This document shows, one piece after another, positions 3,881-32,827 of a stretch of 64,000 nucleotides of DNA. Origin of the DNA: an uncultured Dorea sp. (lineage in GTDB: Bacteria; Bacillota; Clostridia; Lachnospirales; Lachnospiraceae). The position numbers and the translations under genes were made by a program. The DNA is taken from assembly GCA_947063855.1 (NCBI GenBank), contig CAMSTW010000001.1, positions 59,466 to 123,465 of the forward strand, in the 5' to 3' direction. Position 1 is the stretch's first letter. Every line of letters starts with the position of its first letter. The notes under the pieces were generated by a model. That model had not been told where the DNA came from and did not search any database. It saw nothing but the letters and a program-made list of their open reading frames with translations.

Positions 3881-4290
3881 TAAAGTTCAAAGAACAAGTT
3901 TATAGCACAAAGGCGTTGAGGAAGAGGAGTACGCATAAGTTCATCCTGACAGAGAGAGCGTCCTGCCAAGACACAGATGCAGCAGACAGTATATCGGTAT
4001 CGGCTGCTATACCTCGGCAGGCTGAGAGGCGCTTGAGGATTGAGATGCGGAAGGTAGCTTCGGAGCCGGATGACTGAATCTTCTTTCATATTATGGTTTG
4101 CTTATTTATGGTTTACCATTAATACAGAGGCCGGATTGTAAGCGGCAGAAAGAAGCATAGGCCATCCCGGAGTCGTTCCCGTTACAGAATATGATGAGAT
4201 ATGGAAGAACGGATTCTCTTCTATATAAAATAAAGGTGGTACCGCGATTAATTTGATCGCCCTTTACAGAGTAAAGGGCGGTTTTTTATA
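3881..4290 (+). promoter_or_regulatory. T-box riboswitch leader of valS
   Basis: The leader upstream of valS contains the canonical T-box sequence AGGTGGTACCGCG (4235-4246 region), which forms the antiterminator bulge that pairs with the uncharged tRNA acceptor end. A stem I region with GGAGTA- and AGAGAGCG-like blocks lies near the 5' end. An intrinsic terminator sits immediately downstream. Uncharged tRNA-Val should bind and permit readthrough into valS. A GTA triplet at about 4054-4056 (GGAAGGTAGCTTC) is my candidate specifier codon, consistent with valine. Its exact placement in the specifier loop needs a covariance-model fold. Confidence 0.88.
4258..4287 (+). terminator. T-box attenuator terminator before valS
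   Basis: CGCCCTTTAC and GTAAAGGGCG form a perfect 10-bp stem with an AGA loop, followed by GTTTTTT. It overlaps the 3' half of the T-box antiterminator region, as expected for mutually exclusive folds. Confidence 0.9.
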
Positions 4291-23522: not shown

Positions 23523-24908
23523 TCATTTTGCCACTGGAAATAAAACCCGGAAGGTACATCCTCCGCCTTCCGTATCCAGCACCTCAATCTTCACGCCCAT
23601 CTGTTCTGCCAGTGATTGTGCGATCGAAAGCCCCAGCCCGAAATGTTCCTTGTCTTTCCTTGAGACATCACTCCGGTAGAACCGGTCGAAGATCAGGGAT
23701 TTCTGCTCGTGCGGTATCCCCGGCCCGTGATCGCAGACGCAGACGGCAAGCTTTCTGTCGACGGTACTGACCCGGATCTCAATCACAGGCTTCTTGTCAG
23801 GGATGTATTCTTTATCGTTCCGGATCTCAATCACAGGCTTCTTGTCAGGGATGCGTTCTTTACCGTCTGGGGACGCAGCAGACGTCCCGCACCCGTAAGC
23901 AATGGCATTGTCAAGAAATATGGACAGCATCTGCTGAATTCCCTGCGCGTTTCCGTCCACATTCGGAAGAAGCTCATCCGGCAGCGTAAGCTTAAGACGG
24001 ATACTTTTGGCGTTGCAGAGCGGTTCATAGGTCTCGAACAGCTTAAGCAGCAGAAGGTCGATCTCGACGTTTTCTCCGGGCAGCTTCATTTCCTTCGGAT
24101 TGGAGGAGGTCAGCCGCAAGAGATTCCGGATCAGCTTCCCGGAGCGGACGCATTCGTCCAGGATCAGCCGGTTCATCTTCTCCGCCTGTTCCGGCATGGA
24201 CAGACCTGTGGCGGCGCAATTCTGGATCACTGCCAGCGGGGAGCGCAGCTCATGAGAGGCGGCAGCTATGAAGTCCGTCTGCTTCTGGTGGTACTCCGCC
24301 ACCGGAGCCACGGCCTTTGCAGATACGAAACGGCTGACCAGAAAGAGCGCCAGTACGCCCAAGGTTTCCATCAGAAGAAACAGCATGAGACGCCAGGGCT
24401 CCTGGCGTTCCAGCTCTGTAATGTCAGAAAGCAGCGTAAGAGAACGGAATCCGCTCTCCGTCGCCATGACGACCACGGCGCCCTGGTAGGTATCGTGATT
24501 CTCTCCTTCCAGAGTGAAGATGGATGATTTCTGCAGTGTGGACGAGAAAGGCCGCATGGAAGTATCAATATGTTCCGCAAGCGCCGTCTCCTTCGCCAGA
24601 TTCACCAGAGTCTCCCGCTTCGTACGCGGTTCCCAGGAGCCGGAGAAGAACAGAGGGATATTGTTCTCTTCGATGTGGATAATCAGGCGGTGGTCGTGCT
24701 CCAGACTTGCAAGCCAGTCGTCGGAGAAGAAATAAGTCCCCTCAAGCTGATAGGTCAGATTCAGGATCTGGTTCTGCAGGGATACGGTCTGCTCATTTCT
24801 TGACTGGGAGGACTGCCAGAAAAAGAGCACGCAGAGGATCAGAGACAGGATCAGGCTGGTAGGTACGGCGAAGAGAAGCATCAGACGCCGCCGGAGTCTG
24901 TGGATCAT
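23523..24908 (-). CDS. Sensor histidine kinase (two-component)
   Basis: 461 aa. Two N-terminal membrane helices (LMLLFAVPTSLILSLILCVLFFW; LMLFLLMETLGVLALFLVS) flank an extracellular sensor domain of ~130 residues. HisKA follows with AASHELRSPLAVIQN (phospho-His), then HATPase_c with an N box (LDNAIAYG), CDHGPGIP and HFGLGLSIAQSLAEQ. A 48-bp in-frame duplication inserts a second IPDKKPVIEIR within the ATPase domain. It overlaps the response regulator stop by ATGA, so the pair is co-translated. Confidence 0.93.
   Translation of the reverse strand: MIHRLRRRLMLLFAVPTSLILSLILCVLFFWQSSQSRNEQTVSLQNQILNLTYQLEGTYFFSDDWLASLEHDHRLIIHIEENNIPLFFSGSWEPRTKRETLVNLAKETALAEHIDTSMRPFSSTLQKSSIFTLEGENHDTYQGAVVVMATESGFRSLTLLSDITELERQEPWRLMLFLLMETLGVLALFLVSRFVSAKAVAPVAEYHQKQTDFIAAASHELRSPLAVIQNCAATGLSMPEQAEKMNRLILDECVRSGKLIRNLLRLTSSNPKEMKLPGENVEIDLLLLKLFETYEPLCNAKSIRLKLTLPDELLPNVDGNAQGIQQMLSIFLDNAIAYGCGTSAASPDGKERIPDKKPVIEIRNDKEYIPDKKPVIEIRVSTVDRKLAVCVCDHGPGIPHEQKSLIFDRFYRSDVSRKDKEHFGLGLSIAQSLAEQMGVKIEVLDTEGGGCTFRVLFPVAK
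23773..23864 (-). repeat. 48-bp tandem duplication inside the kinase ATPase domain
   Basis: The segment starting CGGATCTCAATCACAGGCTT at 23773 recurs at 23821 with near identity over about 40 bp. It encodes IPDKKPVIEIR twice and keeps frame. Confidence 0.88.
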
Positions 24909-25600
24909 GCCTCCGCCTCCATCTTATAGCCAATCCCGTGTACCGTCAGGATATGGACACGGCTCTTTAAGGTACGCAGATGCTTGCGCAGATAATAGAT
25001 GTAGGTGTCCAGATTCCCGTCCTCCACCTCTGCGTCCGGTCCCCATACCCGGGTGTAGATGAGCTGCCGGGGCAGCGTCTGGTTCGGACGCTGAAGGAAA
25101 TATTCCATCAGGACGGCTTCCCGCCTGGAAAGATGTATGGCCGCATCCAAAGCGCCTGTCTGTCCCTTGATCCGAAGGTCAAGGCTTGAGGGCGAGAACT
25201 CCAGATCCTCGAAGCTTAGCGAATCAGAGACTTCCAGTGTGCCGGGACGCCGGCACAGCGCGCGGATCCTGGCAAGCAGCTCCCCGATATCATAGGGCTT
25301 CACCAGATAATCATCCGCTCCGTTATCCAGCCCCGCGATCCGCTCCTCTACAGAATCCACAGCCGTCGCAAGGATGACCGGCGTAACGACATTACTCTCC
25401 CGTATGATCCTAAGCAGGGCAATCCCATCCATCCCCGGCAGCATCCGGTCCAGAATAATAAGGTCATAGACCGACTGCATCACATAATACAGCGCGTCAA
25501 TCCCATTATGCACAAAGTCCGATTCAAACCCATGATGCGCAAACTGCAGCCGCAACGTCTCACACAACTGTTCATCATCCTCAATCACCAAGATACGCAT
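24905..25600 (-). CDS. OmpR-family response regulator
   Basis: 231 aa from ATG 25600 (RBS AGAAGGGGG); the track adds 9 residues upstream. The REC domain begins MRILVIEDDEQL with phospho-acceptor Asp in LIILDRMLPGMDGI and conserved Lys in DYLVKPYDIGELL. The C-terminal winged helix has SRREAVLMEYFLQRPNQTLPR and VEDGNLDTYIYYLRKHL. It is divergent from the solute-binding lipoprotein operon across a ~440-bp region, which makes that operon a likely target. Confidence 0.93.
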   Translation of the reverse strand: MRILVIEDDEQLCETLRLQFAHHGFESDFVHNGIDALYYVMQSVYDLIILDRMLPGMDGIALLRIIRESNVVTPVILATAVDSVEERIAGLDNGADDYLVKPYDIGELLARIRALCRRPGTLEVSDSLSFEDLEFSPSSLDLRIKGQTGALDAAIHLSRREAVLMEYFLQRPNQTLPRQLIYTRVWGPDAEVEDGNLDTYIYYLRKHLRTLKSRVHILTVHGIGYKMEAEA

Positions 25601-25650: not shown

Positions 25651-25906
25651 ATTTCTACCTGTACGGTTGTAAATCCATTTCCAGTGCACAGGAAGTTTTC
25701 AGATGCCCTTCCTATAAGCAGACATTCGAGGGCGTTTTTAACGGAGGTGAGATCCACGACTTATGGAGACTTAGACTCGAAGGCATTCCTGAGAGTCTTA
25801 GTCGTAGTTAGTCGTTAGCTCACCGGAGTGTTGCCCAGTCTGCGTTAGGAAGGGCATCTGAAAACTTCCGTCCCTAGAACAACACCTCAACCGTACAGGT
25901 AGAAAT
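25651..25906. repeat. 256-bp MITE-like long inverted repeat
   Basis: The outer arms are 19 bp and perfect (25651-25669 against 25888-25906, starting ATTTCTACCTGTACGG). Inner arms of 23 bp are also perfect (25691-25713 against 25847-25869, GGAAGTTTTCAGATGCCC). The centre continues to pair imperfectly and closes on a small hairpin (GACTTAGACTC / GAGTCTTAGTC). No credible protein is encoded. The whole can fold into one long hairpin, as a MITE would, but a structured RNA is an alternative. The flanks are AT-rich, and no clear target duplication was found by eye. Confidence 0.7.
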
Positions 25907-25927: not shown

Positions 25928-25984
25928 AAATCTCAAAAAAATCTTTAAGATTTTTATAAGGTTCTCGAAGATTTTCTGAGATTT
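25928..25984. promoter_or_regulatory. AT-rich inverted repeat upstream of the solute-binding protein gene
   Basis: AAATCTCAAAAAAATCTT (25928-25945) and AAGATTTTCTGAGATTT (25968-25984) are inverted with one gap, 22 bp apart. It ends 57 bp before the lipoprotein start. It could be an operator for the neighbouring OmpR-type regulator or an mRNA 5' hairpin. Confidence 0.45.
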
Positions 25985-26040: not shown

Positions 26041-28266
26041 ATGAAGATGCGAAGAGTCATCAGCCTTATCCTGGCAGTCATACTCACGGCAGGAATCACA
26101 GCCGGATGTAAGCCGCAGGATGAAAAGAAGGAAGAAGATACGAAAGACGGTAAAGTTACCGCAAAGGGCCGTTATGTCGAGCAGGAGATTCCCCTGCCGG
26201 AAGGGGCCGGGGAGGCGTTTGGGATTCAGAATAAGGATGGAGACCTGGTGTTATATACCAGAAACGGCAGCGCCTGCCATAGTTATACCAGAAGCGGGGA
26301 AGAATGGGCAGATTCCGGCGATGTTACCTGGATGACGGATGCGGCGGACCGGCTGGGACTTCAGATCAATCATATCTATACAGGAAGAGACGGCAACATC
26401 TACGGGATGGCGCTCCCATGCAGAGAGGGAATCCCCTATGGACAGCACATTTTAAGGGACGCCGGGGACGGCAGCGCACAGGACTGCACGCCGGCTGTGT
26501 GCCTGGAGGTGCAGGAGGACGGCAACACCACCCTGCTGGTGGATATGGCCGTGCTGGAAAATGGCGTCGTAGGCGTCGGGCAGATGGATGGAATGATCCG
26601 GTTCTATCAGGACGGCAGGGTGGCGGCAGAGACAGAGAGCATTCCTATTGGAATGGACCATCAGCCGGTGATGGCAGCGTCAAAAGGAGCCATTGCCATA
26701 TATGGAAAGGACGGGCAGAGCATTGATTTCTACAGTGCAGATAGTTACGAAAAGAAGAATTCAGTGTCTGTAAAGAAGAACTTGACAGAAGCGCTGATCA
26801 CGCCGGGGGAAGAGGGAATCTGGTATCTCGCGGATTCAGAAGGCATACAGCGGGTAATGGAAGAGGGCAGCATCGTAGAACTGATGATGGAAGGAACCGG
26901 GACCCTCATGAGCACAGATTCCGCATGGCTGATTAATTTCCTCACAGGAGCAGACGGGGAATTCTACGGTCTCTATAAGATTCAGGGAGGCGGCCACAGG
27001 CTCATGTGCTACCAGTTTGACGAGACGGCTGCGGCAGTCCGGAACGAGACTTTAAGTATCTACGGACTCAGGGAGAACCAGACGGTATCTCAGGCCGTGT
27101 ATGTGTTCCAGAGCAGGCATCCGGAGGTGAAGGTAGATTATCAGGCGGCCGTCACAGATACCATGGAAGTGCCCACAGCCGATACGATCCGCGCGCTGAA
27201 CGCCGAACTTCTGAACGGGAGCGGGGCAGATGTGCTGATGCTGGATGGACTGCCTGTGGAATCTTATATGGAGAAAGGGATTCTTGCAGACCTGTCAGAC
27301 CTGTCAAAGCAGTTGTCCGATCAGGGAGTCCTTACGGATGTCATTGGAAATACGGCTGTTGTGGATCAGAAGGTCTACGGGATTCCGGCAAGAGTCAGCG
27401 TCCCGGTGATCTTTGGCGAGGAAGGGAAGGTGGATGCGTGTCAGAACCCGGATGCCCTCCATGCCTATCTGAATCAGAACCCGGGCGGGCGACTCTTTGG
27501 CGCGACGACTCATGAACGGGCAGGAATGACCTTGTTCAATGCATTTTATGAAGACCTTAAGACAGAAAAGGGCAGCCTTGACGAGGAGAAGCTGACGCAG
27601 TTTCTTGAGGACTGGATGCTGTTGTGCGAGGTACAGGCAACGAAGACGATAGAGGAGAAGACAGGGCTTGAGTCAGGCGGCTGGAAGCAGATGGGAAGCC
27701 GGTTCAATTCTGCGTTCGGGCTGGCAGATAATCCGGTTCTGATCGAAGAGATCAACGGTCTGATGTCTTCCATGGTTCCATACGCAATGGCAAGAGAGAG
27801 CGGGAAGGCGGTCGCAGGGTTTAAGCAGTATTATATACCCCAGGTGATCGCAGGGATCAATGCGTCCTCGAAACAGCAGGAGCTGGCGGAGGAATTTATC
27901 GAATGCCTCTTTGAGGAATCGGTACAGAAGGGGGATAATGTAGACGGATTCCCTGTCCTTAGGAGCGCTCTTGACTATATGGCGGAATACGTGGAGACTC
28001 CGGAAGCAGTAGAAATGTCTGTCGGCATGGGCAGCGAAGATCCGGAGACGGGGGAAGAAGTCCACATTGACGCCCAGTTTCCGTCAAAGGATGAGGTAAA
28101 CCAGCTGATCGGGATTATAGAAGGACTTAAGACGCCGTTCATGGTTGACAGCATAGTCGCAGATACCGTTCTCGCCGAGATGGAGAATTGCTATACCGGC
28201 AAACAGACGCTCCGGGAGACGGCAAAAGCGATCTGCCAGAAAGTGGATACGTATCTTGCCGAGTGA
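26041..28266 (+). CDS. Extracellular solute-binding lipoprotein with N-terminal propeller-like domain
   Basis: 741 aa from ATG 26041 (RBS AGAGGAG). Signal peptide and lipobox: MKMRRVISLILAVILTAGITAGC, so it is anchored outside the membrane. Residues ~350-735 match carbohydrate (type 1) binding proteins: QAVYVFQSRHPEVKVDY, ADVLMLDGLPVESYMEKGIL and PVIFGEEGKVDAC. The preceding ~300 residues are extra and beta-rich, with repeated short blades (DGNIYGMALP, DGEFYGLYKI), like a beta-propeller. Usual binding proteins are 400-550 aa. It heads an operon with two permeases; the ligand is unknown. Confidence 0.85.
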   Translation: MKMRRVISLILAVILTAGITAGCKPQDEKKEEDTKDGKVTAKGRYVEQEIPLPEGAGEAFGIQNKDGDLVLYTRNGSACHSYTRSGEEWADSGDVTWMTDAADRLGLQINHIYTGRDGNIYGMALPCREGIPYGQHILRDAGDGSAQDCTPAVCLEVQEDGNTTLLVDMAVLENGVVGVGQMDGMIRFYQDGRVAAETESIPIGMDHQPVMAASKGAIAIYGKDGQSIDFYSADSYEKKNSVSVKKNLTEALITPGEEGIWYLADSEGIQRVMEEGSIVELMMEGTGTLMSTDSAWLINFLTGADGEFYGLYKIQGGGHRLMCYQFDETAAAVRNETLSIYGLRENQTVSQAVYVFQSRHPEVKVDYQAAVTDTMEVPTADTIRALNAELLNGSGADVLMLDGLPVESYMEKGILADLSDLSKQLSDQGVLTDVIGNTAVVDQKVYGIPARVSVPVIFGEEGKVDACQNPDALHAYLNQNPGGRLFGATTHERAGMTLFNAFYEDLKTEKGSLDEEKLTQFLEDWMLLCEVQATKTIEEKTGLESGGWKQMGSRFNSAFGLADNPVLIEEINGLMSSMVPYAMARESGKAVAGFKQYYIPQVIAGINASSKQQELAEEFIECLFEESVQKGDNVDGFPVLRSALDYMAEYVETPEAVEMSVGMGSEDPETGEEVHIDAQFPSKDEVNQLIGIIEGLKTPFMVDSIVADTVLAEMENCYTGKQTLRETAKAICQKVDTYLAE

Positions 28267-32741: not shown

Positions 32742-32827
32742 CGCAGCGGGAGGGATTTGAACCCCCGGAGCCTTGCGGCTCTTCTGCTTTCGAGGCAGAT
32801 GCCATCAGCCAACTCGACCACCGCTGC
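32742..32827 (-). tRNA. tRNA-Ser (anticodon CGA)
   Basis: Reading the minus strand from 32827, GCAGCGG forms the 5' acceptor strand and pairs with CCGCTGC near 32743-32749, followed by discriminator G. The D arm contains GGTCGAGTTGGCTGATGGC. The anticodon stem TCTGC/GCAGA encloses CTCGAAA with anticodon CGA. A long variable arm (AGAGCCGCAAGGCTC) marks a class II serine tRNA. The T loop is GGTTCAAATCC. CCA is not encoded. It decodes UCG. Confidence 0.96.

What the first reader, a model, noticed from the sequence alone, without database searches (positions are those of the whole stretch)
25651..25906. 256-bp perfect-armed inverted repeat resembling a MITE
Two sets of perfect arms (19 and 23 bp) and a closing hairpin make one long foldback with no coding capacity, placed between a response regulator and the operon it may control. 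It may be a non-autonomous transposon or a long structured RNA, and could affect divergent transcription.
Basis: seen in the sequence. Interest (0 to 1): 0.55.

Follow-up and report, generated by a model that had tools for sequence, protein, structure and literature searches.

The report
Mobile hairpin DNA family, gut Lachnospiraceae
The 256-base palindrome is one of about 35-40 copies in its genome of a mobile, non-coding DNA hairpin found patchily across the gut-bacterial family Lachnospiraceae; its pairing arms change sequence but stay complementary in a way that looks DNA-based rather than RNA-based, and no gene that moves it was found.

Summary
The palindrome is real: two sets of perfect arms (19 and 24 bp), with fold z-scores of -13 to -14. 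It is not a single-copy regulatory structure. The same genome holds about 35-40 intact, shortened or partial relatives, and 69 matches to the 18-base end sequence against 0 in the control. Orthologous intergenic regions of three relatives lack it. A covariance model of the inner 131 nt hits 33 of 397 Lachnospiraceae genomes (30 of 334 genera), often with 8 or more copies. In a wider order sample the 6 genomes hit were all Lachnospiraceae. The core covaries strongly (129 double-sided changes, 0 of 500 shuffles), but G.U intermediates are rare and no commoner than A.C. That points to pairing kept at DNA level. Copies are intergenic (96 of 97), show no orientation bias and have no recurring gene neighbour. 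Paralogous copies share a 98-100% identical inner hairpin while their outer ends differ by 10-28%; other genera carry the same core inside different terminal repeats. Best reading: a new family of non-autonomous foldback elements, MITE/REPIN-like in behaviour, with an unknown mobiliser. IS200-type (Y1) transposase is undetected in the host assembly; target duplications were not resolved. Here it sits just downstream of the inferred response-regulator promoter.

The parts
25651..25669 (+). left outer terminal inverted repeat ATTTCTACCTGTACGGTTG
   Evidence: perfect complement of 25888-25906; 69 genome matches to TTTCCACCTGTACGGTTG with up to 3 mismatches, control 0
25888..25906 (-). right outer terminal inverted repeat
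25670..25690 (.). outer linker on the left side; asymmetric partner of the linker at 25870-25887 (AAGGGAC side, read on the - strand)
   Evidence: present in most copies; outer parts diverge between copies more than the inner unit
25691..25714 (.). inner stem P1, one arm (sequence varies between copies, partner arm varies with it)
   Evidence: 24-nt perfect arm; arm variation across copies
25846..25869 (.). inner stem P1, other arm
25715..25845 (-). conserved hairpin core (131 nt; model R1)
   Evidence: covariance-model match at G000:C1:85180-85310, i.e. window 25715-25845; covariation
25768..25803 (-). terminal hairpin of the core (GACTAAG...CTAAGTC), interchangeable between copies
   Evidence: alignment; replaced by unrelated hairpins in L092, L163 and L267
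25916..25921 (-). inferred -10 box (TATAAT) of the response-regulator promoter, just outside the element
   Evidence: same position relative to the conserved AAATCTC box in four species; inference, not tested
25928..25984 (.). conserved imperfect inverted repeat AAATCTC..GAGATTT, likely regulator box, not part of the element
   Evidence: kept in L189-L191, which lack the element
24905..25600 (-). response regulator (Response_reg + Trans_reg_C), neighbour
26041..28266 (+). extracellular solute-binding protein, neighbour

Best explanation
It is one copy of a non-autonomous, non-coding mobile DNA hairpin family of Lachnospiraceae. A conserved 131-nt core hairpin sits on a variable perfect stem (P1), which sits inside lineage-specific outer terminal repeats. 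Most likely the folded DNA strand is recognised by a recombinase acting in trans that was not identified (inferred). Insertions land in intergenic DNA (shown). Afterwards copies decay by deletion inside the hairpin (one closely matched pair shown). The arms stay complementary while changing sequence (shown) because hairpin formation is selected, or because one arm is used as template to correct the other (inferred). At this locus the insertion lies in the inferred leader of the response-regulator operon, and any effect there is probably incidental.
For: Multicopy in own genome. Present in 10 of 12 genus genomes searched. Patchy and multicopy across the family: 33 of 397 genomes, 30 of 334 genera; in the order sample the 6 genomes hit were all of the same family. 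Orthologous intergenic regions of three relatives lack it. Recent spread: L010/L011/L012 share a 100% identical inner unit at unrelated loci; several near-identical copies in G678. Empty or decayed sites in G007. 96 of 97 intergenic, same-direction contexts 24 vs 24, GC skew 50 vs 46. DNA-level pairing: 129 double-sided changes vs 11 G.U cells; A.C not rarer than G.U (stem arms 49 vs 49; core 62 vs about 30 once one invariant non-pair column is removed). Arms locus-specific yet complementary in G361.
Against: No transposase with matching ends: no TIR pair 0.7-3 kb apart and no recurring neighbour protein. IS200-type Y1 transposase is not detected in the host assembly. Target-site duplications were not resolved. 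The 'empty' orthologues are only about 65% identical at protein level, so the junction is not base-exact. Gene conversion between old copies could produce the identical inner units without transposition. The assembly is 84% complete.
Confidence: 0.66

Rival explanations
1. A structured non-coding RNA (trans-acting RNA or RNA partner of a protein) whose gene is carried and spread by MITE-like ends; the core is conserved because the RNA works.
For: 131-nt core with invariant loop nucleotides (CTAAC, CTAAG, GTGGAT) and strong covariation; same core inside different outer ends.
Against: G.U pairs are about 1% of cells and not commoner than A.C, against 10 of 96 G.U and 0 A.C in four tRNAs of the same loci (a small control biased by ARAGORN). 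No fitting Rfam match even at E up to 10. No orientation bias to genes. A shared promoter was not tested for.
Confidence: 0.17
2. Old dispersed repeats homogenised by gene conversion or hairpin-templated repair, no longer transposing.
For: Inner unit identical while outer ends differ 15-22% in L010/L011/L012, and 98-99% vs 72-89% for L049/L050/L059; the same-locus pair L049/L067 shows equal rates (97 vs 98%). Perfect mini-hairpin left at the G007 site with a matching C-to-A change.
Against: Patchy family distribution with bursts in single genomes and absence at orthologous sites still require movement at some time.
Confidence: 0.12
3. A local regulatory structure or terminator serving the response regulator/SBP locus.
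For: Location in the divergent intergenic region. Some relatives carry terminator-like closing hairpins (L267).
Against: Multicopy, absent from three orthologous regions that keep the -10 and AAATCTC boxes. No U-run in this copy.
Confidence: 0.03
4. A REPIN/REP family mobilised by an IS200-like RAYT tyrosine transposase.
For: REPINs are inverted doublets forming ssDNA hairpins, with compensatory changes and tandem clusters (PMC3116915); the behaviour is similar.
Against: Y1_Tnp is absent from G000 and G007 (many copies) and present in G008 (no copies). No GTAG/CGTC-tagged 20-40 bp unit of the described form was recognised (PMC3733652).
Confidence: 0.02

Closest known systems
REPINs / REP sequences with RAYT transposases (Pseudomonas, Enterobacteria)
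   Same: Intergenic, multicopy, non-autonomous hairpins with compensatory changes, decayed remnants and tandem clusters (PMC3116915).
   Different: Here about 256 bp with a 131-nt conserved core and about 20-bp outer repeats; no GTAG-tagged REP doublet identified; no Y1 transposase detected in the host.
Bacterial MITEs (such as Correia/NEMIS, RUP, Nezha)
   Same: Short non-coding, terminal inverted repeats, dispersed, internal deletions.
   Different: No autonomous partner with the same ends found; the same core occurs in elements with unrelated terminal repeats, and an element can hold two cores. Comparison with the named families is from general knowledge; no sequence comparison was made.
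Rfam structured RNAs
   Same: Strong covarying secondary structure.
   Different: No Rfam family matches; no wobble preference.
Palindromic candidate structured RNAs in human microbiomes (PMC8040213)
   Same: Structures seen on both strands of one region; 250 such candidates reported.
   Different: The examples described in its main text are in Bacteroidetes; whether this family is in the supplementary set could not be checked.

Membership tests
MITE | short, no coding capacity | tested here: met
MITE | terminal inverted repeats | tested here: met
   19 nt perfect; 69 genomic end matches, control 0
MITE | dispersed multicopy with insertion polymorphism | tested here: met
MITE | target-site duplication | tested here: inconclusive
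   no constant duplication in L010-L012 or G678 copies; no base-exact empty site
MITE | autonomous parent/transposase with matching ends | tested here: inconclusive
   none found, but assembly only 84% complete
REPIN/REP | ssDNA-hairpin-forming, intergenic, multicopy | tested here: met
REPIN/REP | 20-40 bp GTAG- or CGTC-tagged units as an inverted doublet | tested here: inconclusive
   units described in PMC3733652 not recognised on reading the aligned copies, which have 19-bp ends and a 131-nt core; no dedicated tag scan was run
REPIN/REP | RAYT (Y1_Tnp) transposase in the genome | tested here: not met
   0 matches in G000, 0 in G007; 5 in G008, which lacks the element; G000 assembly 84% complete
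structured RNA | conserved covarying structure | tested here: met
structured RNA | wobble-tolerant pairing on the transcribed strand | tested here: not met
   with small tRNA control
structured RNA | transcription | not testable with these tools
   no expression data
Rfam families | match to a covariance model | tested here: not met

The most novel reading that the evidence does not exclude
The inner core-plus-stem is itself the mobile unit: a folded DNA strand that enters hairpin or palindromic sites and whose stem arms are rewritten (one arm copied from the other, or from the target) after insertion. This would explain identical inner units inside diverged outer ends, locus-specific but complementary arms, and one core shared by elements with unrelated terminal repeats. 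It would be a transposition mode based on hairpin copying rather than fixed ends.
Probability: 0.2. Interest if true: 0.85.

Novelty: new variant of a known kind. Interest (0 to 1): 0.6.

Why it matters
A large, apparently undescribed family of structured mobile DNA in common gut bacteria. It shows covariation normally taken as proof of an RNA, yet the pattern points to DNA. It therefore offers a test of how hairpin DNA is mobilised and how palindrome arms stay complementary, and it warns RNA-motif surveys that covariation alone does not prove RNA.

Tried and rejected
Pattern with one extra base returned nothing; corrected. No copies in IMG/VR, plasmids or phages, so not a phage or plasmid part at that sensitivity. 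Recurrent neighbour genes: the largest cluster (12 loci) is translated element sequence; the rest are orthologous neighbourhoods or ordinary gene families. Flank searches of L010 and L002 gave no orthologous site; flank search in the genus of G361 gave only hits of 81% identity or less, too diverged for base-exact empty sites. Y1 transposase as mobiliser disfavoured. Paper searches found no description of this family in the library; preprints and most subscription journals are not held.

Full report
Observation. The inverted repeat is present as described, with 19-nt and 24-nt perfect arms. Its folding energy is far below shuffles as DNA and as RNA on both strands.

Copies. The window's genome (G000, 3.3 Mb, 136 contigs, 84% complete) holds 80 BLAST matches, which I reduce to roughly 35-40 places: full elements of about 256 bp, a 305-bp form with an extra 45-bp hairpin, internally deleted forms of about 150 bp, fragments and tandem 76-bp units. 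The outer end sequence occurs 69 times against 0 for the reversed control pattern; many of these are solo or deleted remnants. Ten of 12 genus genomes, and no other genus in that sample, gave BLAST matches.

Distribution. A pattern for the core found at least 112 stretches in GTDB genomes, those listed labelled Lachnospiraceae or genera usually placed there. A covariance model built from 33 diverse cores hit 33 of 397 family genomes in 30 of 334 genera, often reaching the scoring cap of eight per genome. A sample of 392 genomes of the order gave six genomes with hits, all of this family. It was not found in viral, plasmid or phage collections. This patchy, multicopy pattern is that of a mobile element.

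This locus. Orthologues of the solute-binding protein in G004, G008 and G009 (64-65% identical) share the divergent response regulator, an AAATCTC..GAGATTT box and a TATAAT-like -10 facing the regulator, but have no element between -10 and start codon. In the window the -10 (25921-25916, - strand) lies next to the right end of the element, so the regulator transcript would carry the element in its leader. This is an inference; no start site was measured.

Pairing. In 33 sequences 96.8% of cells pair; 18 of 32 pairs have double-sided changes (129 cells, 0 of 500 shuffles; slides of 1-3 columns give at most 9 such cells), but only 11 cells are single-sided G.U changes. In a 60-sequence alignment A.C mismatches are as frequent as G.U in the stem and more frequent in the core (one column pair that is invariantly U.G supplies 60 of the 90 core G.U cells and is probably not a pair). 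Related sequences are not independent, so the counts are not probabilities. Four tRNAs from the same loci gave 10 of 96 G.U and 0 A.C, a small and biased control. I read this as pairing maintained in DNA.

Context and orientation. 96 of 97 non-redundant copies are intergenic by a simple ORF call; neighbours +/+ 24, -/- 24, convergent 19, divergent 10; GC skew positive 50, negative 46. No neighbour protein family recurs in a way that suggests a mobiliser.

Modularity. L010, L011 and L012 (unrelated loci, same genome) have identical inner units but 78-85% identical outer segments. L049, L050 and L059 are 98-99% inner and 72-89% outer. The same-locus pair L049/L067 is 97% inner and 98% outer, so the outer parts are not simply faster evolving. 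In another genus (G678) the core lies inside elements with a different 22-bp terminal repeat, singly or as two inverted cores within about 1 kb; the ORFs inside are at most 133 codons and were not searched for families. In G361 four copies have unrelated arms that still pair within each copy. Either the inner unit moves, or gene conversion homogenises it; these data do not separate the two.

Decay. At the L059 site G007 (99% identical flanks) keeps only TTCCAACTGTGCGGTTGGAA, a perfect small hairpin that differs from the L059 end by a C-to-A change restoring complementarity. This is read as deletion plus correction, but a pre-insertion state is not excluded.

Mobiliser. No autonomous copy with matching ends was found in own genome. 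Y1_Tnp is absent from G000 and G007 and present in element-free G008, which argues against a REPIN/RAYT system. The assembly is incomplete, so absence is not proof.

Verdict. New variant of a known kind: foldback, MITE/REPIN-like non-autonomous DNA with an unusual conserved hairpin core.

Noticed in passing
L006 right flank; L064 insert; L213: A second repeated foldback-like sequence (..CGCAGGTGCAGCGGACTACGTTGAGGCTTTT..) in the same genus, once inserted inside a core element.
   Followed up: no
L050, L215, L213 (next to the L050 site): Long conserved hairpin GGCAAGGCTGTGGGAGGTGTCGTC...GACACCTCCCACAACCTTGCC in three species; not compared with Rfam.
   Followed up: no
window 25928-25984: Imperfect inverted repeat AAATCTC..GAGATTT conserved in orthologous promoters, probably a regulator binding site.
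   Followed up: partly
L267 (G324:C82:8500-12000): Two inverted copies with terminator-like closing hairpins flank a tandem array of roughly 64-bp units between convergent genes.
   Followed up: partly
L007/L047 and L013/L048: Tandem repeats of about 76 bp built from left and right element ends next to full copies.
   Followed up: partly
window 3907-4267 and 32742-32827: T-box leader (+) and a tRNA (-) by Rfam.
   Followed up: no
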